A program made the position numbers and the translations under genes. DNA of 52,514 nucleotides from Acetobacteraceae bacterium (GTDB lineage Bacteria; Pseudomonadota; Alphaproteobacteria; Acetobacterales; Acetobacteraceae). The notes beneath the pieces were generated by a model that worked only from the letters and a program-made list of their open reading frames with translations, was not told where the DNA came from and did no database searches. Positions 470 to 33,008 of the stretch are shown piece by piece. Within the stretch, counting starts at the first letter, position 1, and every line of letters begins with the position of its first letter. The stretch lies in assembly GCA_030041375.1 (NCBI GenBank), contig JASHOA010000048.1, positions 1-52,514 of the forward strand. Direction: 5' to 3'.

Positions 470-576
470 CTAGACCCGTGTCGGGCTGACTGTGCAGCCC
501 GACACGGGTCTCGCGCTTTATTCGAGCCCGCGATTCACGCCCTCCGACGATTCCGCCTCGGGCGATCGCGGACTAA
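470..576 (-). repeat. 107-bp two-hairpin repeat, copy A (reverse orientation)
   Basis: Full-length copy in reverse orientation. The distal 17-bp stem (AGACCCGTGTCGGGCTG and its complement) is perfect. The outer end reads CTAA, equal to TTAG in element orientation, as in copies B and F, instead of CTAG. The centre of the first hairpin reads GAATCG in element orientation, the subtype shared with B, F and G. It lies in DNA without a recognisable gene, about 330 bp from the IS66 tail. Confidence 0.9.
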
Positions 577-620
577 GACCTGAGCAGGCTGTCCGATCCG
601 GATGCGGCTACCTGCGAACG

Positions 621-635
621 CAATCACTGTGATTG
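621..635. promoter_or_regulatory. 15-bp palindrome upstream of cupin gene
   Basis: CAATCAC-T-GTGATTG is a perfect inverted repeat of 7-bp arms around one base. It ends 55 bp before the cupin start at 691, a position suited to an operator. The regulator is unknown and no adjacent regulator gene is visible. Confidence 0.35.
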
Positions 636-690
636 GTGGACAGTGACCTGTTTGTTCGGCAGTCTGGTGGCCTTACGCCGGAGGATCTCA

Positions 691-1218
691 ATGGTAACGA
701 CAGAATGTCCTTCCTTCATCGCCCATTGGAGCGGGATCGAACAACCGGACAACAGGCACTATGAGAATGACGATGAGTTGATGAGCATCGGCTCCCCTTT
801 CGGCAAATTCTTCGGCCTGACAAAGTTGGGTATTCATCACGAGAGATTGCCACCTGGCCGGCGTACATCATTTCCGCACGCGGAAAGCGCCGAGGAAGAG
901 TTTGTATATGTAATCGACGGCGAGCCAGATGTCTGGGTCGATGGCCGTCTCCATCGACTCAAGCCAGGCGATGGAGTCGGGTTTCCGGCCGGAACAGGGA
1001 TCGCGCATACCTTCCTTAACAACACCCCGGCCGAAGTCCGCCTGCTCGTGGTGGGTGAACGGAGCAAAGCCGAGAACCGCATCGTCTATCCGCTCAACCT
1101 CGATCGCAAAGCGCTACGCAAGGATTGGTGGCACGATCATCCGAAGCGCGCCCTGGGTCCTCACGACGGGTTGCCTGACCGGGTGCGCGCCGCCAAGTCC
1201 CGGCAACAAGCCGGATAA
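691..1218 (+). CDS. Cupin-domain protein
   Basis: A 175-residue single-domain cupin. The core runs from about residue 45 to 125: a Gly/Pro-rich strand, PHAESAEEEFVYVIDGEP (the first cupin motif, with His and Glu as likely metal ligands), then LKPGDGVGFPAGTGIAHTFLNN (the second motif, with a His). The frame stays open to 643, but ATG 691 is chosen because GGAGGA lies just upstream and the extra N-terminus is not cupin-like. Proteins of this class are stand-alone metal-binding beta-barrels with sugar isomerase, dioxygenase or ligand-sensing roles, and the sequence does not say which. The gene stands alone, with a palindrome (621-635) in its leader and the rpsI 3' end convergent to it. Confidence 0.75.
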   Translation: MVTTECPSFIAHWSGIEQPDNRHYENDDELMSIGSPFGKFFGLTKLGIHHERLPPGRRTSFPHAESAEEEFVYVIDGEPDVWVDGRLHRLKPGDGVGFPAGTGIAHTFLNNTPAEVRLLVVGERSKAENRIVYPLNLDRKALRKDWWHDHPKRALGPHDGLPDRVRAAKSRQQAG

Positions 1219-1409
1219 CGAGGCGGTCGTGTCGCCAGCGAATGAGCGGGTCGTTCCGGGCACGAAGGCGCCTGCACAAAGGCGAACCCGGGGATTCGAC
1301 GCTCCAATGTCCCGGGAACGGACCGGCGCCTTCCCACCTGACGCCGAAGTTCAAACCGAGACACTGCCCACCCGGCGTCCGCCTCGATGGGCCGCCCCCG
1401 GCGCCGAGC

Positions 1410-1898
1410 CTACCGCTTCGAGAACTGGAAGCTGCGGCGCGCCTTGGCGCGGCCGTATTTCTTGCGCTCCACCACGCGCGGATCGCGCGTCAGAAATCCC
1501 GCCACCTTGAGGATGCCGCGCAATTCCGGCTCGTAAAAAGTCAGCGCCCGGCTGATGCCGTGCCTGACCGCGCCCGCCTGCCCGGAAAGCCCGCCGCCCG
1601 AGACCGTGCAGATCACGTCGAACTGGTTGTAGCGGTCGGCCACCAGGAAGGGCTGCGTGATCAGCATCCGCAGCACCGGGCGGGCAAAATACTGCGCCGC
1701 CTTGCGCTCGTTGATGGTGATGTTTCCCTTGCCGGGCTTGATCCACACCCGCGCCACCGCGTTCTTGCGCCGCCCGGTCGCGTAGGCACGGCCCTTGGCA
1801 TCGCGCCTCGGCTCGAGCTTCGGCCGCTCGGCAATCTCCGGCGTGCGGGCCGCCAGCTCCTTGAGGTCGGCCAGCGTGCGCGTCTCGGATGCAGACAT
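1410..1898 (-). CDS. rpsI: 30S ribosomal protein S9
   Basis: A 162-residue S9/uS9 protein. The conserved core begins at [19 protein letters not shown] and ends in the family-typical basic tail [22 protein letters not shown], which reaches the ribosomal P site. A roughly 35-residue N-terminal extension ([17 protein letters not shown]) is common in alphaproteobacteria. The start ATG (1896-1898) has GAGGAG about 8 bases upstream, inside the end of rplM. Only 4 bases separate it from the rplM stop, so the two are co-transcribed and probably translationally coupled. Confidence 0.97.
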
Positions 1899-1902
1899 CG
1901 GC

Positions 1903-2367
1903 TCAACTCCTCGCGTTCTTCGCGTTCATCGCCGCGACATCGAGCTTCTGCGGCGCCTGCGCCGCGTGCGGATGTTCCGGCCCGGCATAGACATGCAGGT
2001 GCCGCATCTGCCGCCGCTGCAACGGCCCGCGGGTGATCATGCGCTCCACCGCCTTTTCGAGCACGCGCTCGGGATGCCGGCTCTCCAGCCGCTGGCGCAG
2101 CGTGCGTCCCTTGATGCCGCCAGGATAGCCGGTATGGTAATAGAAGACCGACTGGTCGAGCTTGTTGCCGGTGATCCGGACGCGCCCGGCATTCACCACC
2201 ACCACATTGTCTCCGCAGTCGACATGCGGCGTGAATTGCGGCTTGTGCTTGCCGCGCAGCCGGGCCGCGATCAGCGCCGCCAGCCGCCCCAGCACCAGCC
2301 CTTCGGCATCGATCAGCACCCAGTCCTTGCGGACCTCCGCAGGTTTCAGTGAAAGCGTCGTCCTCAT
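1903..2367 (-). CDS. rplM: 50S ribosomal protein L13
   Basis: L13/uL13, an early-assembling large-subunit protein. Diagnostic strings are [19 protein letters not shown], the [17 protein letters not shown] segment and the YYHTGYPGG loop. The frame is open to 2445, but ATG 2365-2367 ([16 protein letters not shown]) matches the normal family N-terminus and gives 154 residues. It is the first gene of the rplM-rpsI pair, with a sigma-70-like promoter about 28 bases upstream. It is divergent from the dehydratase gene at 2492, so the 124-bp gap must hold both promoters. Confidence 0.97.
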
Positions 2368-2394
2368 CGGCGGCGTCCTCGCAAACGGCGCCGG

Positions 2395-2423
2395 CTTATG
2401 CCGGCAAGTCCAATGCCCGTCAA
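2395..2423 (-). promoter_or_regulatory. Predicted sigma-70 promoter of rplM-rpsI
   Basis: On the minus strand TTGACG (2418-2423) is followed after 17 bases by CATAAG (2395-2400). These match the -35 and -10 consensus well in a GC-rich genome and lie 28 bases before the rplM ATG. The -10 overlaps a small GCCGGC-TTAT-GCCGGC palindrome. Confidence 0.5.
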
Positions 2424-2433
2424 GTTTTTCCCG

Positions 2434-2455
2434 TTGTGGTATCATATTACCACAA
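2434..2455. promoter_or_regulatory. Inverted repeat, candidate operator of the dehydratase gene
   Basis: TTGTGGTA, then TCATAT, then TACCACAA: perfect 8-bp arms with a 6-bp centre, AT-rich against a GC-rich background. It ends 36 bp upstream of the dehydratase ATG and also lies upstream of the rplM promoter. TGGTA/TACCA half-sites are typical of GntR-family (FCD-type) sugar-acid regulators, which would fit the neighbouring enzyme. That link is inference, and no regulator gene is adjacent. Confidence 0.45.
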
Positions 2456-2491
2456 GTTGCCGCGTCCCCCTTGCCGGCTTACCATTTGACG

Positions 2492-4195
2492 ATGCCGAAC
2501 CATTCCGAGCGCGGCCTCTCCCGCCAAACCGCCGGCTACGGCGATCGCGACTTTTCCCTCTATCTCCGCCGCTCCTTCGCCCGCTCCATGGGCTACTCGA
2601 AGGCAATCCTCGATCGTCCCGTCATCGGCATCGTCGATACCGCCTCCGGATACAACAACTGCCACCGCACCGTTCCCGATCTCGTGGAGGCGGTGAAGCG
2701 CGGCGTGCTCGCCGCCGGTGGCCTGCCGCTCTCTTTCCCCACCATCTCGCTCTCCGAGCCCTCGCTCTACCCGACTTCGATGCATTATCGGAACCTCGCC
2801 GCTCTCGATACCGAGGCGATGCTGTCGGCCCAGCCGATGGATGCGGCGGTGCTCATCGGCGGCTGCGACAAGACGGTGCCGGCGCAACTCATGGCCGCGG
2901 CTTCGGCCGATCTGCCGGTGATCGGCCTCGTCACCGGTCCGATGCTGGCCACGTCCTTCGAGGGCGAGCGCCTTGCCGCCTGCACCGATTGCCGCCGTTA
3001 CTGGGCGGCCTACCGGGCCGGGCGCGTGAGCAAGGAGCGTATTGCCGAGATCGAGGGCCGGCTCGCCACCACCGCCGGCACCTGCGGCGTGATGGGCACC
3101 GCGAGCACGATGGCCTGCCTCACCGAGACGCTCGGCTTCCTGCCCCCCGGCACCGCCAGCATCCCGGCCGTGCATGCCGAACGACTCGCCGCCGCCGAAG
3201 CCGCCGGCGCGCTGGCGATGCAGCTCGTCGATGCCCCCGTCCGGCCCTCGGACCTGATCACGCCGCACTCGGTCGAGAACGCACTCATCGTGCTGCTGGC
3301 GCTCGGCGGTTCCACCAATGCGCTCATTCATCTCACCGCGATCGCCGGCCGCCGCTCCATCCCGGTCGATCTCCACCACCTCAACGAATTGTCCCATCAG
3401 ACACCCGTGTTGGTGGACCTGAAACCGACCGGCGACGGCTACATGGAGGATTTCCACGCCGCGGGCGGGCTCCCTGCCCTGCTCTACGAACTTCGCGATC
3501 TCCTCCATCTCGACGCGATCGACGTCACGGGCACCTCTCTCGCCGATCGGCTCGCGGAGCCTCCGCCCTTCGTCGATCGGCGCTTCATCCGCTCGCCCGC
3601 GAATCCGATCTCGCCCTTGGGCGGCCTCGTCGCACTGTTCGGCACGCTCGCTCCGCGCGGGGCAATCCTGAAGCGCAGCGCCGCCACCCCTGCCCTTTTC
3701 GAGCGCGAGGCACGCGCCGTCGTCTTCGATGGGCTCGAAGATCTGGCCCGACGCATCGACGATCCTTCGCTCGAGGTCACCCCCGACGACTTCCTCGTGC
3801 TCAAGAACGCCGGCCCCCGCTCCGTGGCCGGAATGCCGGAGGCCGGCTATCTGCCGATCCCGCAGAAGCTCGCCCGCGCCGGCGTGAAGGACATGGTGCG
3901 GATCAGCGATTGCCGCATGTCCGGCACTGCCTTCGGCACCATCGTCCTGCACACGACACCCGAGGCCGCCGCCGGCGGCCCGCTCGCTCTGGTCGAAACG
4001 GGTGACCGCATTCGCCTCTCCGTCGCCGAACGGCGGCTCGACCTCCTGCTGGACGAGACAACCCTCGGCCGCCGCCGCGCCCTCTGGCGTGCTCCGCCCC
4101 TGCCGCCGCGCGGCTGGGATCGCCTGGTCGCCGAGCAGGTCCTTCAAGCCGATGCAGGCTGCGATCTCGGTTTTCTCAAACCCGCCCCCGCGTAA
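2492..4195 (+). CDS. IlvD/Edd-family dehydratase (sugar-acid or dihydroxy-acid type)
   Basis: A 567-residue Fe-S dehydratase that removes water from 2,3-dihydroxy acids. Cys57 (GYNNC), Cys125 (GGCDKT) and Cys198 (AGTCGVMG) occupy the three cluster-ligand positions of the [2Fe-2S] pentonate dehydratases. Asp126-Lys127 are the metal/carbamylation pair, and Ser477 in ISDCRMSG is the expected catalytic serine. Length and the short insertions resemble L-arabinonate/xylonate dehydratases more than IlvD, but the substrate cannot be fixed by eye. The frame is open well upstream; ATG 2492 is chosen because the family homology starts there (SERGLSRQTAGYGDRDF). An AT-rich palindrome 36 bp upstream may be a GntR-type operator. 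A DHDPS-family lyase at 31960 could act on the 2-keto-3-deoxy product, though it is far away. Confidence 0.85.
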   Translation: MPNHSERGLSRQTAGYGDRDFSLYLRRSFARSMGYSKAILDRPVIGIVDTASGYNNCHRTVPDLVEAVKRGVLAAGGLPLSFPTISLSEPSLYPTSMHYRNLAALDTEAMLSAQPMDAAVLIGGCDKTVPAQLMAAASADLPVIGLVTGPMLATSFEGERLAACTDCRRYWAAYRAGRVSKERIAEIEGRLATTAGTCGVMGTASTMACLTETLGFLPPGTASIPAVHAERLAAAEAAGALAMQLVDAPVRPSDLITPHSVENALIVLLALGGSTNALIHLTAIAGRRSIPVDLHHLNELSHQTPVLVDLKPTGDGYMEDFHAAGGLPALLYELRDLLHLDAIDVTGTSLADRLAEPPPFVDRRFIRSPANPISPLGGLVALFGTLAPRGAILKRSAATPALFEREARAVVFDGLEDLARRIDDPSLEVTPDDFLVLKNAGPRSVAGMPEAGYLPIPQKLARAGVKDMVRISDCRMSGTAFGTIVLHTTPEAAAGGPLALVETGDRIRLSVAERRLDLLLDETTLGRRRALWRAPPLPPRGWDRLVAEQVLQADAGCDLGFLKPAPA

Positions 4196-4464
4196 CCGCG
4201 CCCGCCTCGCCCGATCGGCCCCGCAGGCTTCCGCGGATCCCCGAGCCGGAGCGCGAGTTCGATGATGCCATCGGCACGCAGGCGCGAACGAAGGGCGAGC
4301 CGCATCCCGGCGGCGACGAACTGGAGATGGTCGATCTCGAGGCCCATTCCGCTCGCCGCGATCGCCCGCCAGGCCAGGCGGGCTGCTTCGGGAAGATGAT
4401 TGCCGAGGCAGCGCTCGGCCTCCGCAGTGGGAACGATGACAACCGGCGCGTTTGCCCGGACCAT
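4144..4464 (-). CDS. Small hypothetical protein
   Basis: A 106-residue product beginning at ATG 4462-4464, preceded by GAGGAG at good spacing. The N-terminal half (VVIVPTAEAERCLGNHLPEA) could fold, and the C-terminal 25 residues are Gly/Arg-rich and low-complexity. It overlaps the 3' end of the convergent dehydratase by 52 bases, so the tail may be an artefact of reading antisense to that gene. I do not recognise the family. The ribosome binding site is the main support. Confidence 0.4.
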   Translation of the reverse strand: MVRANAPVVIVPTAEAERCLGNHLPEAARLAWRAIAASGMGLEIDHLQFVAAGMRLALRSRLRADGIIELALRLGDPRKPAGPIGRGGRGYAGAGLRKPRSQPASA

Positions 4465-4775
4465 GGCGGTCTCCTCGGTTTGCTGCACGACCAAGCCGCC
4501 CGGACAGATTCCGGTTGCGGACTGATTGCTGCACCGAGGGAACGGGCTCAGAAATTCACGCGGACAACGCTCCAGGAAAGAGGGGGCTCCGGGCAAGGCG
4601 GGCGGCCCTATGCCGGATTTCTTGCGCCGTTGCAAGCATAATTCGCCATCCGGGCACGGCGCCCCGGGGGTCCCAGGCGATCATTTCGACAACAGGCAAG
4701 AACAGTTCTGAGAAGGGAAGGCGCCCCGATACACGGCTCCGGGCGGCACGCGTCGGGGATCGTCAGAAACCCTGG

Positions 4776-4882
4776 TTAGCCCGCGATCGCCCGAGGCGGA
4801 ATCGTCGGAGGGCGTGAATCGCGGGCTCGAATCAAGCGCGAAACCGGTGTCGGGCTGCACAGTCAGCCCGACACCGGTCTAG
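4776..4882 (+). repeat. 107-bp two-hairpin repeat, copy B
   Basis: Full-length copy with TTAG at the left end and CTAG at the right; subtype GAATCG. In the 17-bp stem, position 6 is changed from C-G to G-C on both arms (left AAACCGGTG, right CACCGGTCT), a compensatory double change that preserves pairing. Position 2 has a single uncompensated G-to-A change. No gene lies close by on either side. Confidence 0.9.
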
Positions 4883-5461: not shown

Positions 5462-5481
5462 CTTTTCATTTTATTGCGCCG

Positions 5482-6420: not shown

Positions 6421-6730
6421 TCATGCCGCGGTGGCCTGACTGGCGCTCGTGCTGTCATTGGCGAGGCCGGGGTACCAGCGCTCGAACTTCGACCGAAGGG
6501 TTCCGTCGAGCACGCGCGTTCGGGTCTGCAGCAAAAGATGGGCACCCCGCTTCGTCCATTGCATCTGCTGGCGCTTGGCGAAGCGCTTACCGATAACGGC
6601 GTTGACTGTGGACTCCGCCAGGCATGAGGAGATGCGCTCGCCGGCGCGGAACCGCTCGCCGTAGTTGATCAGGCTGGCAGCGTTGGCAGCGATGTAGTTC
6701 GCGAAATCGCGCGCTGCACGAAAGAGGGCT
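6421..6730 (-). pseudogene. ISKra4-type transposase, C-terminal remnant
   Basis: About 100 codons in frame to TGA at 6421-6423. The sequence DFANYIAANAASLINYGERF, then the ERISS motif, ESTVNAVIGKRFAKRQQMQWT and GAHLLLQTRTRVL...FERWYPGL match the C-terminal end of ISKra4-family transposases as I know them. The remaining roughly 80% of the gene is missing. At about 6725-6735 the sequence switches into a broken gamma-glutamylcyclotransferase-like gene on the same strand, so this is a deletion scar or partial IS insertion. The frame continues open upstream through the other gene out of phase, which produces a spurious long reading frame. Confidence 0.65.
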
Positions 6731-7163
6731 GCAGAAGCGGCAAGGACGCATCCGGCAGCGGCAAATCCACACCCGGCGCCTTGCTCGGCCTTTCCGGTAT
6801 ATAAACCCAAATCTTCCCCTGTGCCGGAAGGCGCTGCCGGGAGACCGCCTCGATATCGGAGCGCGGCACCTCGGCGTGTGCATAACCCGCCTCGCGCCCA
6901 TCGAACGCGGCCATCTCGTTCCCCTCGACCGGAAACAGCACGCCATTGATCGTCATCGCCTCTGCTCCGGGCCCGGGTCGCGCCAGCCCGAGCCCGGTAA
7001 ATCCTGACGCGGACCGTTCGTCCCCGGTACGCACGTAGCCGAATGCCGCGGAGACCCGCACAGGAATGGTATGGATCGGCTTCGGCGGGGTCGCGTTTCG
7101 CGAAGCGGAGTTGATGCGGGAGCCATAGCCGAAAATGAAGTTGCCCGGCTGACCCGGGAGCAT
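6726..7163 (-). pseudogene. Gamma-glutamylcyclotransferase-like gene, 3' end lost
   Basis: Begins at ATG 7161-7163 with the family hallmark NFIFGYGSRIN. The segment VRVSAAFGYVR, GFTGLGLARP and the INGVLFPV block follow, ending at PDASLPLLQ, where the family normally continues into a further helical segment. Here sequence similarity stops at about 6725 and ISKra4-type transposase sequence takes over. The frame runs on to 6669 through non-homologous residues. GGCT-fold proteins cleave gamma-glutamyl peptides to 5-oxoproline; this copy is probably inactive. Confidence 0.6.
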
Positions 7164-7264
7164 CCGGCCTCAATAATCCTGGGCAGCCGCGGCCTGCGAG
7201 GCAGCGATCAGAAGCACCGCCGCGATGATGACCGGGTTGCGCGCATCTCCCCGCCTCCTCTCAA

Positions 7265-8132: not shown

Positions 8133-8212
8133 CTAGCCCGCGATCGCCCGAGGCGGAAACGTCGGAGGGCGTGAATCGCGGGCTCGAATAAAGCGCAAGA
8201 CCCGTGTCGGGC
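8133..8212 (+). repeat. 107-bp two-hairpin repeat, copy C (truncated)
   Basis: The first hairpin and the left arm of the second are present (CTAG start, GAAACG subtype, left arm up to GTGTCGGGC). The sequence then diverges into AGCAAACGTCGGGG, and the right arm is gone. It is the only truncated copy in the window and lies between convergent genes. Confidence 0.88.
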
Positions 8213-8297
8213 AGCAAACGTCGGGGGGCAGGAGACTCCGTCTCTCGCGCCTCTGAGCCGCCTCTTCGCTGCGCGGCACCGAGCCGCCCAGCCCGGC

Positions 8298-9416: not shown

Positions 9417-9933
9417 GCACTCACTCCTGGGGTCGAAACCGATGCTCTCATGGACTGATCCCGCCGCCGGCAAGCGGGCATGCGCCCGGGCTTCGCTACC
9501 GCACAGGGACGAACGCCCCGACTGCGAAATTCATCATCTCATCGAGGCCGCCGGATCGGCATGCTCGCTCTTTGTGTTCAGTGGCCTGCTGATCCCTTTG
9601 CGTTTGCTGCCTGCGGCAGCGAACGACAAGGGCAGGAAACTAGCATAGCGCGGCAGTGGCGCAAGCAAGCTCATTCGCCCCGGTGCGTCCGGCCGGGAGG
9701 AAGGGCGGCCAGGGCAGGGCTCGCTGCGAGCCCGGAAGTAACGTTCCGGTGCTCGCGATCACGGCGGCACCGCGGGCCAGGCTCGCGCCGGCCTCAGCCG
9801 GCATGTAAAAGGGGATCGAATCAATCGCGCAAGAAGCCGTCGTGCATGCATGGGCACCCGAAGTGGCCGTGCCGGGCGTCCGCTTGCGGCGAGGGACAGC
9901 GCCTTTCTGCTGATCGATGAGGAGGCGAAGACA
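9417..9933. other. Divergent intergenic region, sulfotransferase / phosphoesterase
   Basis: About 517 bases between two divergent genes that must contain both promoters. I see a perfect 7-bp hairpin GGGCTCG-CTG-CGAGCCC at 9717-9733 and no clear -35/-10 pair. No gene is supported; the frames that cross it have no family similarity. Confidence 0.45.
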
Positions 9934-11838: not shown

Positions 11839-12382
11839 GGAGTGGCCGTCGCGTGCTGGGGAATATCGAGAGCAGCGGGCCGGCCCCGGGGTAGCGGGAA
11901 TCGCACACCGGAGCAGCGTGAATGGCACAGGAGTGACATCTTTCCCGTCATGCACCCGCTCGCCATCCCCCTCTAGCCCGCGATCGCCCGAGGCGGAAAC
12001 GTCGGAGGGCGTGAATCGCGGGCTCGAATAAAGCACGAGACGCGTGTCGGGCTGCACAGTCAGCCCGACACGCCTCTAGGGAGAAAAGCATCCGGTCGAC
12101 AACGAGCACGCAACGCGGATGAAGGGTCTACCCAACGTCACGCCGACGCCGCTGCCCGACATCTCCGCTCACAGAGCGTAGCTGCGGTTCCTTTTCGGTC
12201 ACGAACTCGAGCCGTTGTTGTACCGTGTACTCGCCCTCTGAGCAGAGTGACGCGCTGATTCCTGGTCGACGGCGCAACGCTCATCGATATAGGATGCGGG
12301 CAGCACTGCGAGCGAACCTTCGAGCGGCTGTACACCTGTCTTGTACTGCTTCGGATATCGCCCCCATCAGGAGAGAACGGCA
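11839..12382. other. Intergenic region holding repeat copy D
   Basis: Roughly 540 bases between two co-directional secreted-protein genes. Repeat copy D fills 11973-12079. The remaining 300 bases before the next start at 12383 contain no recognisable gene or clear promoter. No intrinsic terminator other than the repeat follows the phosphoesterase gene. Confidence 0.45.
11973..12079 (+). repeat. 107-bp two-hairpin repeat, copy D
   Basis: Full-length copy bounded by CTAG on both sides; subtype GAAACG. Stem position 5 has changed on both arms (left AGACGCGTG, right CACGCCTCT), converting C-G into G-C, which is compensatory. Position 4 carries an uncompensated change that leaves a C-C mismatch. 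It lies between two plus-strand genes. Confidence 0.9.
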
Positions 12383-13430: not shown

Positions 13431-13537
13431 CTAGCCCGCGATCGCCCGAGGCGGAAACGTCGGAGGGCGTGAATCGCGGGCTCGAATAAAGCGCGAGACC
13501 CGTGTCGGGCTGCACAGTCAGCCCGACACGGGTCTAG
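13431..13537 (+). repeat. 107-bp two-hairpin repeat, copy E (reference copy)
   Basis: Structure of the element: CTAG; hairpin 1 with 10-bp arms AGCCCGCGAT/ATCGCGGGCT and an inner CGCCC/GGGCG pair; linker CGAATAAAGCGCG; hairpin 2 with perfect 17-bp arms AGACCCGTGTCGGGCTG and its complement around CACAGT; CTAG. This copy lies between convergent genes, 20 bases after the plus-strand stop. Its right-hand CTAG provides the TAG stop (13534-13536, minus strand) of the acyl-CoA synthetase gene, so it is placed as a bidirectional terminator. Subtype GAAACG. Confidence 0.93.
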
Positions 13538-15555
13538 GGTGAATCCTTCGGTATCAAGCGTTGGAGTCGGCACACTGGATCGCCCTGTATCTCCACGTTC
13601 AAAAGCGCGTCCGCTACGACGACGCCTTCCCCTTCCGCCATCACGATCAGCGGATTGATCTCCGCTTCCACCACCTCCGGCAGGGCGGCAAGTCGCGAAA
13701 AAAGCGCAACCGTACGCGCGAGCGCGGCCAGATCGCCCTTCGGCAGTCCGCGATAGCCCCGCGCCGGAGCGAGCCCCTTCATGGCAGCGATCATCTCGTT
13801 CGCCTCGCCCACGCTGGCGGGAGCAAGCCGAACCACGACGTCGCGATCAATCTCCGCCAGCATCCCGCCGGCACCGAGTACCACGATCGGACCGACCGAC
13901 GGATCCCGCCGGAAGCCGAGCAGCACTTCCGCCACGCCGCGCGCCATGGGCTGGGCAAGAAACCCTCTGATCCGATCGCCCAGGCGTCGTCTCATTCCCG
14001 CCGCCGCCGCGCGAAGCCCGGCGGCATCCGCGACATCGAGCGCCACCGCGCCGGCCTCGGTCTTGTGTGCCAGGCCCGCTGCAACCGCCTTCAGCGCCAC
14101 CGGATAGGCCAGCGGCGGCGGCGCATCCGGATCGACCAGCCTCGCGCCATCCGGTAGCCCGAGCGCCGAAAAGACCGCACGCGCCCCCACCTCGTCGTCA
14201 GAAGCTGCAAGCATCCCGGTCGTGAAGGGCCGATCCGCCAGCGGCGGCGGCGTGCGTGGCGCCCGCCAGGCGAACCAGGCGCGAACAGCATCCGCGCAGG
14301 CTTCGGGCGTGCGAAAAGCGGCGATCCCTTGGTCCGCGAGCAGGCGAAGCGACCGCTCGGCCTCCGGCGCCAGAAATGCGACCACAGGCTTCTCCCTGTC
14401 TCCCGCGATCACACCGGCCACGGCTTCATGCGGACGGAATTGCGCGGAACTGCCGATCACCGCAATCGCCAGATCGGCACCGTCCCTGTTGCCGGCCTTC
14501 GCGAGCGCGCTCGCAACGCCCTCTTTCCCGGCCCCGGCAAGCGTGGTGTCGTGCATGTCCGCGACGCTGATGCCCGCCAGCCCGAGCCGATCGATGACCA
14601 TCGCCGCCCCGCCGCCGGTGGTCGCAACCACGCTCACCGCGCGGCGCGGCTGCTTCGGCGGACCGCACGCCGCAAGCGGCGGAATTTCGAACAGCGTCTC
14701 GAGGCAGTCCACGCGGATGATTCCGCTGGCGTGAAAGAACGCATCCGCCGCCGCATCCGAACCGACCAGCGCGCCGGTGTGCGTCACCGCCAGCCGCGCA
14801 CCTTGCTCCGAACGCCCGAGCTTGTAGGCGATCACCGGCTTCTTCGCCGCATGCGCGCGGCGCGCCGCGGCCGCCATGCGCCCGGCATCGCGGATCGTTT
14901 CGAGAAAGAGCAGGATCGCCCGGGTCTCCGGATCATCGACCAGGAGATCGGCAATCTCCCCCGCGGCGAGGTCCGCCTCGTTACCGGTCGCGATCAGCTT
15001 GGCGAACCCGATCCCTCGCGCCGCGGCGCGCGAAACGAGTGCGCCCATCATGCCCCCGGAATGCGAGATCAGCGCAAGACCTCCGGCGGGCAGGCTTTCG
15101 GCCTCGAGCGCCGCATTGACCGAGCAGGCAATCCGCCCGCTCACGTTGATCATGCCCATGCTGTTCGGCCCCAAGAGCCTGACGCCCCCCGCCCGGGCCA
15201 CGGCCAGCATCTCCTGCTGCACCGAGGCGCCTTCCGGCCCGGCATCGGAGAACCCGTCGGCGAGGATCGCGGCAACCCCAACGTGCGCCGCCGCGCACTC
15301 GGCGATCGCCTCCGCAACCAGCGCGGTCGGCAACAGCACATAGGCGAAATCGACCGGCTCCGGCACATCGGCGAGCCTCGCAAACGCCGCCTCTCCCATG
15401 ACCGTCCGGCTCCGCCGATTGATGAGATAGAGCGTGCCGGGAAACCCGTGCCGGCGCAGGTAAATGTGCGCCCGTGCCGTCATCCGCGACGCATCCGCCG
15501 AGGCACCGATCAGCGCAATGCGCCGAGGTGCGAACAGCGAGGCAAGCAGACTCAT
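13534..15555 (-). CDS. NDP-forming acyl-CoA synthetase (ATP-grasp)
   Basis: A 673-residue fusion of the two succinyl-CoA-synthetase-like halves. There is a CoA-binding domain (residues 1-130, RRIALIGASADASRMTARA), a ligase domain with the phospho-histidine motif VTHTGALVGSDAAADAFF, and a C-terminal ATP-grasp_5 domain (YPVALKAVAAGLAHKTEAGAV...GPIVVLGAGGMLAEI). It activates an organic acid to its CoA thioester with ATP to ADP, or runs in reverse. ATG 15555 overlaps the stop of the upstream acyl-CoA dehydrogenase gene as ATGA, so translation is coupled. It is the last gene of a six-gene minus-strand operon, and its TAG stop lies within repeat copy E. Confidence 0.88.
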   Translation of the reverse strand: MSLLASLFAPRRIALIGASADASRMTARAHIYLRRHGFPGTLYLINRRSRTVMGEAAFARLADVPEPVDFAYVLLPTALVAEAIAECAAAHVGVAAILADGFSDAGPEGASVQQEMLAVARAGGVRLLGPNSMGMINVSGRIACSVNAALEAESLPAGGLALISHSGGMMGALVSRAAARGIGFAKLIATGNEADLAAGEIADLLVDDPETRAILLFLETIRDAGRMAAAARRAHAAKKPVIAYKLGRSEQGARLAVTHTGALVGSDAAADAFFHASGIIRVDCLETLFEIPPLAACGPPKQPRRAVSVVATTGGGAAMVIDRLGLAGISVADMHDTTLAGAGKEGVASALAKAGNRDGADLAIAVIGSSAQFRPHEAVAGVIAGDREKPVVAFLAPEAERSLRLLADQGIAAFRTPEACADAVRAWFAWRAPRTPPPLADRPFTTGMLAASDDEVGARAVFSALGLPDGARLVDPDAPPPLAYPVALKAVAAGLAHKTEAGAVALDVADAAGLRAAAAGMRRRLGDRIRGFLAQPMARGVAEVLLGFRRDPSVGPIVVLGAGGMLAEIDRDVVVRLAPASVGEANEMIAAMKGLAPARGYRGLPKGDLAALARTVALFSRLAALPEVVEAEINPLIVMAEGEGVVVADALLNVEIQGDPVCRLQRLIPKDSP

Positions 15556-28099: not shown

Positions 28100-28684
28100 A
28101 TGACCGCTCGAGAAAAGCGATTGATCGTCGTGCATCGCTTCATTTGCGCCCTGCTCGACATACAACGTGAACGCGGTTTTTGGGCGACGGGGTCGAAGAC
28201 CCGGGATTCGATCAAGTGGTTCTATGGTGATGTCATGATTTCGGAGCGCGCCCTCCGAGAATGGTTCAAAAGACCTGAAATCATCCGCTACCAGCACCCC
28301 GCGTCATCCATGGGCGGTAGGAAGGGGAGCCGCGCCTTCGTCGCGGATCATCCGTTTCCCACGAAAGAGCTGCAAAACCTCGTATTAAGCCGGTACCGAC
28401 GCACGAACCCGACGCTAAAGCAGATTGAAGAACTTCTTCGGACGCACAATCGGATCTGCTATGTGTGGTTCGAAGAAGATGAACGGCTGCGGGCCGCTGG
28501 TTATAATTCACGAAATCCCGACAGTGCTGATCCAGACGATGTGTTCGCGCGGTACAAGGAAGTCGAAATCCATGCGCTTGGTACAAGGTTTCCGGATGGG
28601 AAATATCTATTCAAATGCTTGTCTGAGTTGAGACACGACCACGTGAGCGTCGCTCGAGCTAAGGAGAAGCTGAATGCCTCATAA
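28100..28684 (+). CDS. Uncharacterised protein, first gene of low-GC cassette
   Basis: A 194-residue product, read from ATG 28100 (GTG 28088 is an alternative; neither has a strong ribosome binding site). The N-terminus is basic and helical (REKRLIVVHRFICALLDIQRERGFW). KWFYGDVMISERALREWFKRPEI and TLKQIEELLRTHNRICYVWFEEDERL follow, and the C-terminus is charged. I do not recognise a family and see no membrane segment or metal motif. Base composition falls to roughly 50% GC against about 65% in the flanking SUF genes, a sign of transfer. It overlaps the next gene by 11 bases, and the pair should act together. Confidence 0.6.
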   Translation: MTAREKRLIVVHRFICALLDIQRERGFWATGSKTRDSIKWFYGDVMISERALREWFKRPEIIRYQHPASSMGGRKGSRAFVADHPFPTKELQNLVLSRYRRTNPTLKQIEELLRTHNRICYVWFEEDERLRAAGYNSRNPDSADPDDVFARYKEVEIHALGTRFPDGKYLFKCLSELRHDHVSVARAKEKLNAS

Positions 28685-29666
28685 GGCGATCGCTCTCATT
28701 CACCCGGGTACTGAATTCAATGTGGACCCACCGCCGCCCTGTGCGGAGCAATGGGTTTGGGAAGAGCCTGGTCACATCGGTATACGTCAGTGGAACAATG
28801 AGCTCAGTCACAGGCGCAAGTTCCTGATTGCAAAAGGAAAATATCGGGAGCTGCCCAATTCGCCTGACAAGTGTGGGGCAATAACCTTCTGGGGGGAATG
28901 GGAACCGCGGTCGCGGGCGACCAGATTGGTTGCTCGGAACAATAGAAAATGCCTGCAACCCGAATTTGTTCACCGACCGATACCGGTCTTAGCCGGAGAG
29001 CCACGCGGTTGCCAGAATACCGACCCATTCGTATTTGGAGACAGGTTCTATTATACAAACTGTAGCCAGACAGGAATAATGCGATTGCTCGACAATGGAT
29101 CTGTAATTCTTTTTGGAACGCCGTATCCACATAGCGATGAATTTCATGTCGATACGGTATTCGTTGTAAGAGATTACGTTTCTCCTTGTGCATATCTTGC
29201 GGCGCCGGATCATTTACCGCAACAACTTCGTCTTGCCACGCTTGACCTCGGCGGTTTGGCCGCCAACAATCTTGGGCTCAGATTTTACAAAGGGGCCACG
29301 CCAGCCGATGGATGTCCGTTTTCATTTGTGCCGTGCCGTCCCGCGCCTGGCGATCAGCCTCTGGGCCATGCCCGGCTAAGACTTTGCCGCCGGGCGTTTG
29401 GGATAAGAAGGACGTTTCAAGGACATCCATTTATTGAGTGTGTAGAAACCCAGGACCAATGCTCCGAATTCTGGTGGAGAGTCGTGAAGGAATGCAAAAA
29501 GCAGGGGCTGTTTCTCGGTCACTCGATCATTCTGCCGCCCTTCCCCGATGTCGAACGCGGAGCCGATGCTCTTCATAAGAGGGCTGTCAGTGGGTGTTCC
29601 GCGCCGGACCCGCCAGTAGCCGCCTCTCCAGTACGATCATCGCCCAGGTGTCGCGGTCGCAGTTAA
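28674..29666 (+). CDS. Uncharacterised protein, second gene of low-GC cassette
   Basis: A 330-residue product starting at ATG 28674 with AAGGAG upstream, inside the preceding gene. Conserved-looking blocks are ALIHPGTEFNVDPP, then KCGAITFWGEWEPRSRA, CQNTDPFVFGDRFYYTNC, LDNGSVILFGTP and EFHVDTVFVVRDYV, later LGLRFYKGATPADGCPFSFVPC and SEFWWRVV. I recall similar Asn-Thr-Asp-Pro-Phe and Trp-Gly-Glu-Trp-Glu motifs in unnamed proteins of other bacteria but cannot name the family. No membrane segment was seen. GC is low up to about 29230 and rises after. The last 25 residues (SGCSAPDPPVAASPVRSS) look like run-on into unrelated DNA. Confidence 0.6.
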   Translation: MPHKAIALIHPGTEFNVDPPPPCAEQWVWEEPGHIGIRQWNNELSHRRKFLIAKGKYRELPNSPDKCGAITFWGEWEPRSRATRLVARNNRKCLQPEFVHRPIPVLAGEPRGCQNTDPFVFGDRFYYTNCSQTGIMRLLDNGSVILFGTPYPHSDEFHVDTVFVVRDYVSPCAYLAAPDHLPQQLRLATLDLGGLAANNLGLRFYKGATPADGCPFSFVPCRPAPGDQPLGHARLRLCRRAFGIRRTFQGHPFIECVETQDQCSEFWWRVVKECKKQGLFLGHSIILPPFPDVERGADALHKRAVSGCSAPDPPVAASPVRSSPRCRGRS

Positions 29667-29824
29667 GTCCTGAGCCCGTGGCCAGTAACTCGCGCCGGTT
29701 CGCGCTCGCCTCGGGTGAGCTTGCGTCGAGGAGACCTCTTGAGCCTAGCCCTGCACCCCTCGGCCAGTTCCGGCAAATGGATCGAGTCCCGGATGACGGC
29801 GTGATGTGTGACCGAACTTGAGCC

Positions 29825-30085
29825 ATGCCGACGCTCAGCGCGTTCTACGGCATCTTGATTCAAATGTTCTGGCAGGATCACCCGCCGCCCCATTTCCATG
29901 CCCTCTATGCAGAATACGAAGCCCTCATTGACATTCGAACCCTGGAAGTGATCGAGGGAGACGTGCCGCGACGCGCACTTGCCCTTGTGCTGGAATGGGC
30001 GCAGGAACATCGCAGTGAACTGATGGAGGATTGGGAACTATGCAAGCGCAGGCAAGCGCCGAAGAAGATCGAGCCGCTTCCGTAA
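29825..30085 (+). CDS. DUF4160-domain protein
   Basis: An 86-residue protein with the DUF4160 pattern: a short strand, IQMFWQDHPPPHFHALYAEYEALIDI, then RRALALVLEWAQEHRSELMEDWELCKRR. DUF4160 genes typically sit next to DUF2442 genes, as here, and the pair has been listed as a putative toxin-antitoxin module; biochemical proof is scarce to my knowledge. The ribosome binding site is weak (TTGAG). It overlaps the DUF2442 gene by 46 bases. Confidence 0.8.
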   Translation: MPTLSAFYGILIQMFWQDHPPPHFHALYAEYEALIDIRTLEVIEGDVPRRALALVLEWAQEHRSELMEDWELCKRRQAPKKIEPLP

Positions 30086-30369
30086 CGCCGCCCGTGCGAC
30101 CATCCATGCCGTGGCGCGTGCGTGAAGTCACCGCTCTGCCGGACTATCGTCTGTCGGTCCGGTTTGTTGACGGCCTTAGCGGAATCGTCGACATGTCCGC
30201 CCTGGTATCCTCGCCGGGTGCGGGTGTTTTCTCGTGCCTGCGGGATCGGGAACGCTTCGAGCAGGTCTATCTCGACCACGGAGCTGTCGTATGGCCAGGG
30301 GAGTTGGACCTTGCTCCGGACGCCATGCACTCGGCGATCAAACAAAATGGCGAATGGAGGCTTGTCTGA
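30040..30369 (+). CDS. DUF2442-domain protein
   Basis: A 109-residue protein. The DUF2442 core is WRVREVTALPDYRLSVRFVDGLSGIVDM, then FEQVYLDHGAVVWPGELDLAPDAMH. ATG 30040 is chosen because GGAGGA lies about 10 bases upstream; TTG 30031 is possible. It is co-transcribed with the overlapping DUF4160 gene. Family members occur as putative antitoxin-like partners or fused to DUF4160. It ends 44 bases before the right-hand copy of the 70-bp repeat, so it marks the right end of the islet. Confidence 0.8.
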   Translation: MQAQASAEEDRAASVTPPVRPSMPWRVREVTALPDYRLSVRFVDGLSGIVDMSALVSSPGAGVFSCLRDRERFEQVYLDHGAVVWPGELDLAPDAMHSAIKQNGEWRLV

Positions 30370-30413
30370 GAGAATTCCGCTAACCGCGGCAGTCCGCCGC
30401 AAACCTCCGACCA

Positions 30414-30483
30414 CTCCGGCTTCACCTTCAGCAATCCGAACGAGAAGGGCCGCTGCGGCTGCGGCGAAAGCTTCCACGTGTGA
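30414..30483 (+). repeat. 70-bp direct repeat, right copy (orphan sufA 3' end)
   Basis: Identical to 27663-27732 over all 70 bases, but here there is no sufA upstream. The preceding sequence (AAACCTCCGACCA) is unrelated beyond the border. Together the two copies bracket about 2.7 kb of atypical DNA. No integrase gene is inside the bracket. Confidence 0.9.
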
Positions 30484-30487
30484 TCTG

Positions 30488-30504
30488 CGAGAACAAGCTT
30501 CTCG
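30488..30504 (+). terminator. Short hairpin after the orphan sufA end
   Basis: CGAGAA-CAAGC-TTCTCG starts 5 bases after the right-hand repeat. With a 6-bp stem and only TT following, it is weak. It may be part of the ancestral downstream region of sufA. Confidence 0.3.
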
Positions 30505-30537
30505 TTGGGACGCTATCTGATCGGGGCCGGAACGGAA

Positions 30538-31053
30538 TCAGGGAAGAGCCGTGCGGCCCTCCTTCCGCATCTGGGATTCCGGATTGTAGGCCATGAAACG
30601 GACGATCTTCCAGGAGCCGTCCGGCTGGCGGCGGAAGATGTCCATGCCGGCCTCGTGGGAGGTCTCCGGGGGACCTTGTGCAGGCGTTGCTGTGAGCGTC
30701 CAGTCCAGGCGAACGACGGTAAGGTTGCCGGCGGTGATGATGTCATTGATGCGATCGAGCGCGTAACGGAACGTCGGCTCCGGATTAGAGATCAAGTGTC
30801 GCAGGCGGTCGCAGAGCCCGGAATAGGTGCCGTTCCGGATCGGGCCGGCATCGTATCGGAGATCCGGTGCAAAGACATCGCAGACGTGGGCGGTGTCGCG
30901 GGCGTTGAAGGCGGACGTCCAGGAAGCGAGCGCGCTCCGGATCGCGGTGGCAGTCGGCGATGGCGAGGCCGGCGGTTGAGCGCCGGCAGTGCCGAGGCTG
31001 GCGGCAAGGCCCAGCAGGATCGGCGGAAGGACCGCAAGATGCCGGAAATGCAT
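30538..31053 (-). CDS. Secreted SnoaL/NTF2-like (DUF4440-type) protein
   Basis: A 171-residue product read from ATG 31051-31053, which gives a signal peptide (FRHLAVLPPILLGLAASL, cleavage near AGA-QP) and has GGGGGG just upstream; the frame is open to 31089. The mature domain ATAIRSALASWTSAFNARDT, then VCDVFAPDLRYDAG, NGTYSGLCDRLRHLI and SHEAGMDIFRRQPDGSWKIVRFM is a typical NTF2-like cone fold. Such proteins bind small molecules or act as isomerases; no function can be assigned. It is convergent with the islet border, and repeat copy F lies 42 bases upstream of its start. Confidence 0.75.
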   Translation of the reverse strand: MHFRHLAVLPPILLGLAASLGTAGAQPPASPSPTATAIRSALASWTSAFNARDTAHVCDVFAPDLRYDAGPIRNGTYSGLCDRLRHLISNPEPTFRYALDRINDIITAGNLTVVRLDWTLTATPAQGPPETSHEAGMDIFRRQPDGSWKIVRFMAYNPESQMRKEGRTALP

Positions 31054-31095
31054 CGAACCCCCCGCACAGGAATCTCCGGTCTCAGTCAAGGAGCC

Positions 31096-31202
31096 TTAGC
31101 CCGCGATCGCCCGAGGCGGAATCGTCGGAGGGCGTGAATCGCGGGCTCGAATAAAGCGCGAGACCCGTGTCAGGCTGCACAGTCAGCCCGACACGGGTCT
31201 AG
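31096..31202 (+). repeat. 107-bp two-hairpin repeat, copy F
   Basis: Full length, TTAG left end, CTAG right end, subtype GAATCG. One stem base differs on the left arm only (GTGTCAGGCTG), leaving an A-C mismatch. It lies between two minus-strand genes, just upstream of the SnoaL-like gene, so here it cannot be a terminator for a convergent pair. Confidence 0.9.
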
Positions 31203-31296
31203 TCAAGCAGCGGAGGACTGGGTTCGTAAAGAACGGGCAAACGAGGAGCGATCAGCGCGCCAGGCGTCTCATCCGCCCACCCGCCGCGACCAGAGA

Positions 31297-31335
31297 CACC
31301 CGTTCCCCGCTCGCGCGGGAGAGAGGCGACGGGTG
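31297..31335 (-). terminator. Two-part hairpin downstream of secreted-protein gene
   Basis: CACCCGT (31297-31303) pairs with ACGGGTG (31329-31335), and inside it CCCGC pairs with GCGGG around TCGC. It lies 19-57 bases past the stop of the minus-strand gene at 31354, as expected for its terminator, but no U-run is evident. Confidence 0.4.
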
Positions 31336-31353
31336 CCCCCGACTTTCTTGGCG

Positions 31354-31776
31354 CTACTTGCCGGCTTCCTGGATCGCGAGGTCGGTGAAATGCCCGGCCT
31401 GGGCCAGATCGTTCCGGCCGAGCGCATCGCGCGCCTGGCTCAGGTTCCTGACCAGGTCCGAGCTGTCAGGCACATTGCTGGTTCCGAACGTGACGGAACG
31501 CGTGAGCGCCTGCGTCTCCGCATTCTCGAGCGCCTCCTGGGCGAGGCCCGTCTTGCCTTCCGTCAGGGCCGAACGCGCGACCGCGAGAATCTGCCCGATC
31601 GTCGCATCGGGACCGAGCCCCGTACTCGGAAGCTGCGGCGCAATCGGCGAGGTGATGGTACTCGACGGAAGGTTGCTCGCCTTGGTCGAAACGGGATTCG
31701 CGGCAAAGCCCGGCAGAGCGGCGAGCGCCAGCCCTGCAAACATCGACCAGCCCAGCAAAATCTCTCTCATCCTCAT
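31354..31776 (-). CDS. Small secreted protein of unknown function
   Basis: A 140-residue product with a signal peptide (MREILLGWSMFAGLALAALPGFA-AN). The mature part has a Ser/Thr/Pro-rich linker (NLPSSTITSPIAPQLPSTG) and then a helical region with repeated Ala and Gln: GQILAVARSALTEGKTGLAQEALENAETQAL and LVRNLSQARDALGRNDLAQAGHFTDLAI. This resembles TPR-like or heme-less helical hairpins seen in small periplasmic proteins. No known family was recognised. AAGGAG precedes two closely spaced ATGs (31776 and 31770); either may be used. Confidence 0.65.
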   Translation of the reverse strand: MRMREILLGWSMFAGLALAALPGFAANPVSTKASNLPSSTITSPIAPQLPSTGLGPDATIGQILAVARSALTEGKTGLAQEALENAETQALTRSVTFGTSNVPDSSDLVRNLSQARDALGRNDLAQAGHFTDLAIQEAGK

Positions 31777-31959
31777 GGCTCCTTCCCTTCAACGGACATT
31801 CCAGGGATGGGCGTTGGCTTGTTTCCTCACCCTGGGGAAAGATAGGTCCACTCCCGGCAATGGGCAACCGCGCGCCCGCCAGGTGCCGCTCCGGCTTGAC
31901 CAGGCCGCCTGAAATGGGCAGGGCAATCGGCCGGTAACAAAGCCAGGGAGCGTCCTGCA

Positions 31960-32892
31960 ATGAGCGAGAAAAAGCCCTCCACAGCCTATCGCGGCGTGTT
32001 CCCCGTCGTGCCGACGATCTTCGACGAAGAGGAAAATCTCGACCTTGCCGGCCAGCGCCGGGCCGTCGACTTCATGATCGAGGCCGGCTCCGAAGGCCTC
32101 TGCGTTCTTGCCAATTATTCCGAGCAATTCTCGCTGACGGATGCTGAGCGCGAGCAGGTGATGCGGGCGGTGCTCGAGCATGTCGCGGGCAGGGTGCCGG
32201 TGATCGTGACCACCAGCCACTTCAGCACCCGCATCTGCGTCGAGCGCAGCCGCCAGGCCCAGGCCGCCGGTGCGGCGATGGTGATGGCCATGCCACCCTA
32301 TCACGGCGCCACCTTCCGGGTGGCCGAAGCCGGAATTTTCGCTTTCTTCCGAGCCCTCTCCGAGGCGATCTCGATCCCGATCATGATCCAGGACGCACCG
32401 GTGGCCGGCACCCCGCTTTCCCCCGCCTTCCTCGCCCGCATCGCGCGCGACATCGAGCACGTGGCCTATTTCAAGCTCGAAGTGCCGGGCACCGCGGCCA
32501 AGATCAGGGAGTTGATCGCCCTCGGCGGGGCAGCAATCGTCGGTCCTTGGGACGGCGAGGAAGGAATCACGCTGCTCGCCGATTTCGAGGCCGGCGCCAC
32601 CGGCACGGTAACCGGCGGCGGCTATCCCGACGGCATCCGCCAGATCACCGATCCCTTCCTCGCGGGCCGCCGTGACGACGCTGCCGCCGCCTATGCACGA
32701 TGGCTGCCGCTGATCAATTACGAGAACCGCCAATGCGGGCTTGCCGCCTGCAAGGCGCTGATGAAGGAAGGCGGCGTCATCGCCTCCGATGCCGTGCGCG
32801 CCCCGCTCCAACCGCTGGCACCCGCCGTGCGTGCCGGCCTCATCGCGATCGCATGTCGCCTCGACCCGGTGGTGCTGCGCTGGGGCCGCTGA
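31960..32892 (+). CDS. Dihydrodipicolinate synthase / N-acetylneuraminate lyase family protein
   Basis: A 310-residue class I aldolase-fold lyase. FPVVPTIFDEEENLDL opens the barrel, EGLCVLANYSEQFSLTDAER replaces the usual GTTGE block, PPYHG holds the conserved Tyr, and VAYFKLE supplies the Schiff-base lysine. The C-terminal region has GPWDGEEGITLLADFEAGATGTVTGG. Departure from the GTTGE motif makes true DapA unlikely. Family members of this kind act on 2-keto-3-deoxy sugar acids as aldolase or dehydratase, which would suit the IlvD/Edd-type dehydratase at 2492. AGGGAG precedes the ATG. Repeat copy G starts 10 bases after the stop. Confidence 0.8.
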   Translation: MSEKKPSTAYRGVFPVVPTIFDEEENLDLAGQRRAVDFMIEAGSEGLCVLANYSEQFSLTDAEREQVMRAVLEHVAGRVPVIVTTSHFSTRICVERSRQAQAAGAAMVMAMPPYHGATFRVAEAGIFAFFRALSEAISIPIMIQDAPVAGTPLSPAFLARIARDIEHVAYFKLEVPGTAAKIRELIALGGAAIVGPWDGEEGITLLADFEAGATGTVTGGGYPDGIRQITDPFLAGRRDDAAAAYARWLPLINYENRQCGLAACKALMKEGGVIASDAVRAPLQPLAPAVRAGLIAIACRLDPVVLRWGR

Positions 32893-32901
32893 GCATCGGA
32901 C

Positions 32902-33008
32902 CTAGACTCGTGTCGGGCTGACTGTGCAGCCCGACACGGGTCTCGCGGTTTATTTGAGCCCGCGATTCACGCCCTCCGACGATTCCGCCTCGGGCGATCG
33001 CGGGCTAG
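32902..33008 (-). repeat. 107-bp two-hairpin repeat, copy G (reverse orientation)
   Basis: Full length, CTAG at both ends, subtype GAATCG. The arm read at 32904-32920 has AGACTCGTG, giving a single wobble/mismatch pair. It lies between convergent genes, 10 bases after one stop and 67 bases before the other, a terminator-like placement as for copies C and E. Confidence 0.9.

What the first reader, a model, noticed from the sequence alone, without database searches (positions are those of the whole stretch)
470..33008. Seven copies of a 107-bp two-hairpin repeat with CTAG/TTAG ends
Copies lie at 470-576, 4776-4882, 8133-8212 (cut), 11973-12079, 13431-13537, 31096-31202 and 32902-33008, five forward and two reversed. 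Six are exactly 107 bp. Each has a first hairpin with 10-bp arms, a short linker and a second hairpin with 17-bp arms. All are outside recognised genes except for a 3-base stop codon overlap. None occurs in the conserved blocks 13.5-31 kb or 33-52.5 kb. This is the profile of a REP/BIME- or MITE-type non-autonomous element, but with two different hairpins per unit. I do not recognise it as a named family.
Basis: partly seen in the sequence, partly recalled or inferred. Interest (0 to 1): 0.82.

Follow-up and report, generated by a model that had tools for sequence, protein, structure and literature searches.

The report
Mobile two-hairpin repeat in Acetobacteraceae
A 103-letter piece of DNA that folds into two hairpins has copied itself to about 300 places in this bacterial genome, and relatives with the same design occur across the bacterial family, but the enzyme that moves them has not been found.

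Summary
The repeat is real and far larger than seven copies. Its 31-nt core (up to 3 mismatches) occurs 300 times in the 4.5-Mb genome, control 0; of 59 other genomes searched, one sister species has 48, a second has one, 57 have none. It is mobile: at 9 own sites both flanks were found together in held sister-species DNA, and 8 are empty there, 1 occupied. Net insertion is 103 bp. The moving unit runs from the foot of hairpin 1 (AG) to the foot of hairpin 2 (CT), in YNRR targets, often CTAG, which is about ninefold depleted here. A regular target duplication is not seen. A second, 131-bp family has the same layout; it matches in 34 of 200 Acetobacteraceae genomes, 25 of 102 genera, with compensatory pairing. 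This is REPIN/BIME-like anatomy, but PF01797 (Y1/RAYT) was not found in the five genus genomes searched, Y1 does not track the second family, and none of the 57 IS630 and 12 Y1 loci read has matching ends. Verdict: a REPIN-like element with an unidentified mobiliser.

The parts
470..576 (-). family-1 two-hairpin element, full length (moving unit AG..CT 472-574)
   Evidence: empty site TTAG in sister species G001
4776..4882 (+). family-1 element, full length
   Evidence: empty TTAG in similar (not certainly orthologous) sequence of G001 and G002
8133..8212 (+). family-1 element cut inside hairpin 2
8213..8233 (+). sequence like the 3' arm of a family-2 bulged hairpin, fused to the cut family-1 copy
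   Evidence: read by eye
11973..12079 (+). family-1 element, full length
13431..13537 (+). family-1 element, full length; its terminal TAG gives the stop codon of the gene called at 13534-15555 (-)
   Evidence: the element and about 40 bp beside it are absent from G001
13538..13576 (-). remnant of a family-2 perfect hairpin at whose internal CTAG the 13431 copy sits
   Evidence: read by eye: sequence compared with the family-2 unit
31096..31202 (+). family-1 element, full length
32902..33008 (-). family-1 element, full length
9555..9646 (+). family-2 element, bulged-hairpin half (CTCTTTGTGTTCAGTGGCCTGCTGATCC ... AAACTAG)
   Evidence: relatives of the family-2 unit in 25 genera

Best explanation
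The repeat is a non-autonomous mobile element of REPIN/BIME-like design. The moving unit is 103 nt, from the 5' foot of hairpin 1 (AG) to the 3' foot of hairpin 2 (CT), and it enters a YN|RR target, often CT|AG, without a regular target duplication. One hairpin is bulged and nearly invariant in sequence and is taken as the recognition site; the other is kept by pairing more than by sequence and is taken as the partner end. Head-to-tail arrays that share CT|AG or CT|CG look like rejoined ends. Shown: mobility, length of the insertion, target preference, structure conservation, a second family of the same design across Acetobacteraceae. Inferred: the exact cut point, and that an enzyme acting in trans recognises the folded single strand and cuts after CT at the hairpin feet, as TnpA-REP does. 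The enzyme is not known and no Y1 (PF01797) protein was detected in these genomes.
For: 300 core matches in the genome, 48 in G001. Empty sites at 8 of 9 own sites that could be compared; 7 of these 8 give exactly a 103-bp net insertion, the eighth (C17) is read from the alignment because its right flank is partly unaligned. One G001 copy has CTAG left and CTGA right while its own-genome site is empty CTGA. Where the left dinucleotide is not TA, the right one equals it in only 4 of 29 copies; outer positions vary more than inner ones, 35 against 17, p 0.018. Hairpin 2 keeps pairing through changes on both sides (19 cells against 3.4 shuffled, slid versions 0-8), while hairpin 1 is nearly invariant in 77 copies. 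Tandem arrays of 103 bp and 131 bp in family 2. Family 2 repeats the layout with covariation in its bulged hairpin (52 cells against 20.1 shuffled; slid 5-12). TnpA-REP cuts at CT 5' or 3' of the hairpin and, in E. coli, needs a bulge (PMC8266576, passages).
Against: PF01797 in 0 of 5 genus genomes; Y1 in 4 of 34 family-2-positive and 20 of 166 negative genomes. No GTAG at the hairpin foot. No link between element orientation and GC skew, which a lagging-strand ssDNA route would predict (44 own copies and 19 in G001 counted). The 4 of 29 agreeing dinucleotides are more than chance (1.1 expected, P 0.018), so a 2-nt duplication or a 2-nt core exchange at some sites is not excluded. For the five clean comparisons whose empty site is not CTAG/TTAG, my own count needs about 5 substitutions without duplication and 6 with a TA-type duplication, so they do not decide. 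In one search one of five measures (further pair types, 18 against 17.5) does not exceed its control.
Confidence: 0.6

Rival explanations
1. A MITE mobilised by an IS630/Tc1-mariner type DDE transposase: target TA inside CTAG, duplicated on insertion; end variation arose later by mutation of the disfavoured CTAG.
For: The genus carries IS630 elements with ends TA|GAGCGGTTTC, TA|GTACCC and TA|GTGT placed in CTAG or TTAG. Two empty sites are TTAG and two CTAG. Many end variants are single transitions of CTAG. In other genera family 2 has matching ends AGTGTCC..GGACACT of 7-9 bp.
Against: None of 57 IS630 loci read carries these ends (27, 30 of the more than 100 matches); many of these stretches are cut by contig ends. 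In one, L269, a family-2 copy abuts the IS630 at a shared CTAG, but the IS end itself is TAGAGCATG. Family-1 ends share only TAG plus scattered bases. Left and right dinucleotides differ in 25 of 29 informative copies. IS630 needs no hairpins (recalled), yet pairing is conserved.
Confidence: 0.2
2. A classical RAYT-driven REPIN whose RAYT sits in an assembly gap, on a lost replicon, or was lost recently.
For: Anatomy, CT|AG feet, tandem arrays and extragenic placement agree with REPINs (PMC3116915 and PMC8266576 passages).
Against: Not found in 5 genus genomes, three of them 98-100% complete, and no association over 200 genomes; none of 12 Y1 loci read (of 29 Y1 matches listed) is flanked by the elements.
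Confidence: 0.12
3. A structured RNA or regulatory element (terminator, mRNA stabiliser) spread by selection, not a selfish element.
For: Compensatory pairing; enrichment between convergent genes, 16 copies in 48 convergent gaps against 6 in 52 divergent.
Against: No Rfam match above the gathering score on the elements examined (one 6S RNA lies beside a family-2 copy; a sub-threshold match to a Brucella sRNA, E 0.12, overlaps another). No orientation preference in one-direction gaps, 11 same and 14 opposite. No T-run after hairpin 2. 300 against 48, 1 or 0 copies between species.
Confidence: 0.08

Closest known systems
REPIN / BIME with RAYT (TnpA-REP)
   Same: Two hairpins per unit, hundreds of extragenic copies, tandem arrays, terminal TAG used as stop codon, compensatory changes, a bulged hairpin in E. 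coli, CT at the cut points (PMC3116915, PMC8266576, PMC3733652, passages)
   Different: PF01797 not found in the genus; no GTAG; hairpins of about 40-60 nt with different partners; target CT|AG
CGTC-tagged REPs of Alphaproteobacteria
   Same: Alphaproteobacterial palindromic repeats, mostly inverted dimers, without an associated transposase (PMC3733652, section 6 and passages)
   Different: Those have 8-9 bp stems, 4-5 nt loops and a CGTC tag at one end; here stems are longer, ends are AG..CT and the unit is 103 or 131 nt
Bru-RS of Brucella and RIME1 of Rhizobium
   Same: About 103-109 bp palindromic repeats (Bru-RS length seen in a table passage of PMC2267715; RIME1 size and its two palindromes recalled only)
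   Different: Sequences not compared directly; the family-1 query gave no blastn match in 72,556 plasmid records, which I presume include rhizobial ones
RUP and other IS630-type MITEs
   Same: Similar length (RUP 108 bp in the table passage of PMC2267715), TA/CTAG-type targets, IS630 elements present in the genome; mobilisation of RUP by an IS630 is recalled
   Different: No matching IS ends among loci read, no consistent TA duplication, two separate hairpins

Membership tests
REPIN/BIME with RAYT | two palindromes per unit in many extragenic copies | tested here: met
REPIN/BIME with RAYT | cognate Y1 tyrosine transposase (RAYT) in the genome | tested here: not met
   PF01797 in 0 of 5 genus genomes; the same search rings in 5 of 14 control genomes
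REPIN/BIME with RAYT | GTAG (or GTGG) guide at the hairpin foot | tested here: not met
   feet are mostly CTAG, TTAG, CCAG
REPIN/BIME with RAYT | cut at CT beside the hairpin, no target duplication | tested here: inconclusive
   unit ends CT|AG; 4 of 29 informative dinucleotides agree
IS630-type MITE | TA target-site duplication | tested here: inconclusive
   CTAG or TTAG at 4 of 8 own empty sites, but ends do not covary
IS630-type MITE | terminal inverted repeats shared with an IS630 | tested here: not met
   0 of 57 IS630 loci read, a part of those found, many cut by contig ends
CGTC REP | 8-9 bp stem with 4-5 nt loop and terminal CGTC tag | tested here: not met
   definition from PMC3733652 section 6
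IS200/IS605 derived element (name PATE recalled) | TnpA Y1 acting in trans | tested here: not met
   no PF01797 in the genus; guide pairing not tested
Rfam RNA family | match above the gathering score | tested here: not met
   window and 8 loci

The most novel reading that the evidence does not exclude
Acetobacteraceae carry their own superfamily of paired-hairpin mobile elements (at least two sequence families sharing AG..CT feet, a TTTRTT linker, a bulged recognition hairpin and CT|AG insertion) that is moved by a hairpin-reading recombinase outside the known Y1/RAYT family.
Probability: 0.35. Interest if true: 0.82.

Novelty: new variant of a known kind. Interest (0 to 1): 0.62.

Why it matters
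Alphaproteobacterial palindromic repeats without a transposase are an open puzzle (PMC3733652 says so of the CGTC repeats). Here is a set with a defined unit, likely cut points, recent bursts (300, 48, 1 and 0 core matches in members of one genus) and empty sites in sister species, so the mobiliser can be hunted by presence and absence. If it is not a Y1 enzyme, it is a new way of moving DNA hairpins.

Tried and rejected
RAYT/IS200 origin: PF01797 not found in own and four sister genomes; 24 of 200 family genomes have it, without association with family 2 (Fisher p 1; handles show the same 200 genomes). IS630 parent: 27 loci of the genus and 30 loci from 23 chosen family-2-positive genomes read; none has the ends, and for most of them no inverted-repeat ends could be located at all. 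L269 holds a family-2 copy that abuts an IS630 at a shared CTAG; the IS has its own end. Larger element made of one hairpin 1 and one hairpin 2 around a gene: no such pair within 5 kb in held own and G001 DNA. Genes beside two family-1 arrays and one family-2 array: proteins with a hit are transporter permeases, dehydrogenases, a P5C reductase, an epimerase, a glyoxalase, lgt and a glycerate kinase, none a transposase; several have no hit. Orientation against GC skew: none. Orientation against genes: none. Plasmids and phages: no match for family 1; plasmids none for two family-2 units; IMG/VR: 2 contigs with the family-2 core, not followed. A first script for empty sites had a sign error for minus-strand matches and was replaced. 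nhmmer also reports opposite-strand hits of the self-complementary hairpin 2; these were left out by requiring nearly full-length matches, and tandem copies (20 of 82 own, 1 of 23 G001) were left out of the empty-site test. Other transposase families (IS5, IS110, IS91 and so on) were not searched.

Limits: own copies were not drawn at random. L001-L030 are the best-scoring ones and the 20-kb stretches were chosen around exact core matches, so the invariance of hairpin 1 is somewhat overstated. One search scored only 4 candidates per genome, so 34 of 200 is a lower bound. Gene calls come from a simple codon model of my own. Alignment A3 holds 23 of the 43 family-2 hairpins, picked by hand for similar length (shorter ones were left out), and its structure was taken from one of its rows; A4 holds 50 of the 88 distinct family-1 copies.
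Full report
What was checked. The seven copies are as described. On its own strand the unit is CT|AG-hairpin 1-linker-hairpin 2-CT|AG. The DNA fold of copy 13431 gives hairpin 1 at positions 3-52 (10-bp stem, TGA bulge on the 3' arm, 5-bp stem, internal loop, GGCG-GAAW-CGTC tip), a 13-nt linker with AATAAA, and hairpin 2 at 66-105 (17 bp); z -9.2. Both hairpins start with AG and end with CT.

How many and where. The genome (95 contigs, window = C39) holds 300 matches to the 31-nt core within 3 mismatches, 165 forward and 135 reverse, control 0. Of 60 genomes searched, own included, three match: own, G001 with 48, G002 with one; two further members of the genus and 55 genomes of other genera have none. 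BLAST with the window start shows a few degenerate copies also in G002 and G004. In 437 kb of own DNA with my own gene calls, 52 full-length copies fall 25 in one-direction gaps, 16 in convergent, 6 in divergent, 4 at edges and 1 inside a gene, although 81% is coding. Genes beside the arrays looked at are ordinary ones.

Mobility. Of 62 own full-length, non-tandem copies tested against held G001 DNA, 9 had both flanks side by side: 8 empty (TTAG, TTAG, CTAG, CTAG, CTGA, CTGA, CCGG, CGAG) and one occupied in both species. Seven of the 8 give exactly 103 bp net insertion. The eighth, C17 (CGAG), has a partly unaligned right flank and is read. The window 4776 site is inside a repeated sequence, so its empty counterparts in G001 and G002 are similar, not certainly orthologous, sites. 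Of 21 G001 copies tested, 4 could be compared: one is the shared site, one has a clean empty site in own (CTGA), one a near-empty site with a 5-nt offset, one a rearranged site. The window 13431 copy is missing in G001 together with about 40 bp of a family-2 remnant; it is not among the 9.

Unit ends. In 83 non-tandem copies (62 own, 21 G001) the left tetranucleotide varies at positions 1 and 2 (20 each) and 3 (12) but never at 4; the right one varies at 106 (15) and 107 (14) more than at 104 (3) and 105 (5). Where the left dinucleotide is not TA, the right one equals it in 4 of 29 (1.1 expected; P 0.018). I read this as a YN|RR target and an AG..CT unit without regular duplication. Positions 3 and 105 also pair at the hairpin feet, which by itself would keep them. 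A 2-nt core exchange, or duplication at a minority of sites, is an alternative that I cannot exclude. CTAG itself occurs 145 times in 437 kb against 1351 expected from base composition, and 65 of the 145 lie at elements.

Conservation. In 77 copies hairpin 1 is nearly invariant apart from a few positions, while hairpin 2 carries shared variants, many compensated. Counted on 50 distinct sequences: 97.3% of cells paired, 19 cells changed on both sides against 3.4 in shuffles and 0-8 when slid. The double changes are in hairpin 2 only; hairpin 1 varies too little to test.

A second family. Window 9555-9646 led to a 131-bp unit, AGTGTGCCGAC..GTCGGCACACT - linker with TTTATT - AGTGGCCTGC TGAT CCCC..GGGGCAGGACACT, with tandem arrays of 131-132 bp joined at CT|AG or CT|CG and a 131-bp spacing of three own copies. 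Own has 46 core matches within 1 mismatch. In 200 Acetobacteraceae genomes 34 match, 25 of 102 genera, own genus included, outside the genus mostly over the bulged half and its linker. Other genera keep sequence close to CTTTGTTTTCAGTGGCCTGCTGATCC and GGGCAGGACACT while the upper stem changes in step: in 23 chosen sequences, 52 cells changed on both sides against 20.1 shuffled and 5-12 slid; pairs with a double change 9 against 6.8; further pair types 18 against 17.5, no excess. In 385 class-wide genomes, five of them (own included) of the same family, only own and one single-mismatch match were found. Family 1 read on its minus strand has the same layout: perfect hairpin, linker with TTTATT, then a hairpin with a 10-bp lower stem, a 5'-side TCA bulge and a C-rich upper stem. 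Relationship of the two families is inferred from layout, not from an alignment score.

Mobiliser. Y1_Tnp (PF01797) was not found in five of five genus genomes, while the search rings in 5 of 14 control genomes. Over the family it is in 24 of 200 genomes, 4 of 34 with and 20 of 166 without family 2. None of 12 Y1 loci and none of 57 IS630 loci read has the ends; these are parts of the matches found, and many IS630 stretches are cut by contig ends. In L269 a family-2 copy and an IS630 with its own end TAGAGCATG meet at one CTAG, as family-1 copies do with other IS630 ends; this fits a shared liking for CTAG. Other transposase families were not searched. Orientation shows no link with GC skew or with gene direction.

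Known kinds. From passages read: REPINs are REP doublets with compensatory changes, moved in trans by RAYTs by proposal (PMC3116915); TnpA-REP needs GTAG and, in E. coli, a bulge, and cuts at CT (PMC8266576); CGTC repeats predominate in Alphaproteobacteria and seem to lack a transposase (PMC3733652). A 2025 survey reports 1,369 REPs in its text and 6,569 in its table for Lichenicola cladoniae, an Acetobacteraceae member (PMC12306157, passages; taxonomy), without describing this design in the passages seen. Searches with Acetobacteraceae, Acetobacter, REP, REPIN, RAYT, MITE and CTAG terms (12, 12 and 15 papers listed of 270, 20 and 138) showed no title on such an element; absence from print is not proven.

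Verdict. Works like a REPIN (fair confidence), is not a member of the RAYT-REP family as defined (features tested and not met), and is a new variant of a known kind. The open and testable point is the missing enzyme.

Noticed in passing
window 9555-9646; L182:6556-6686 (-): A second, 131-bp two-hairpin repeat family found across Acetobacteraceae; it became part of the argument.
   Followed up: yes
L174 near 14940-14980: A further AG..CT perfect hairpin (AGAGCGTGTTCAG..CTGAACACGCTCT) abuts a family-2 copy in G001; possible third family.
   Followed up: no
L074:6985-7226, L079:18388-18619, L085:14034-14202: Solo hairpin-1 units and 57- or 63-bp tandem arrays of hairpin 1 joined at its 5' foot, without hairpin 2 between them.
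   Followed up: partly
held own DNA (437 kb): CTAG is about ninefold rarer than base composition predicts, and nearly half of the remaining ones lie at these elements.
   Followed up: partly
window 6421-7173 (-): Partial match to an ISKra4 family transposase (75 residues at the C-terminal end of the model), below the curated cut-off.
   Followed up: no
L114/L136, L125/L131, L269:853-1000: IS630 elements with ends TA|GAGC.. and TA|GTACCC sit in CTAG or TTAG; family-1 copies lie right at sequences like the GTACCC end and in another genus a family-2 copy abuts an IS630 at a shared CTAG.
   Followed up: partly
L216:1247-1402 (-): A 6S RNA gene (Rfam RF00013) about 40 bp from a family-2 element in another genus.
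   Followed up: no
L279, L280: Two IMG/VR contigs carry the family-2 core, so phage-like DNA may carry these elements.
   Followed up: no
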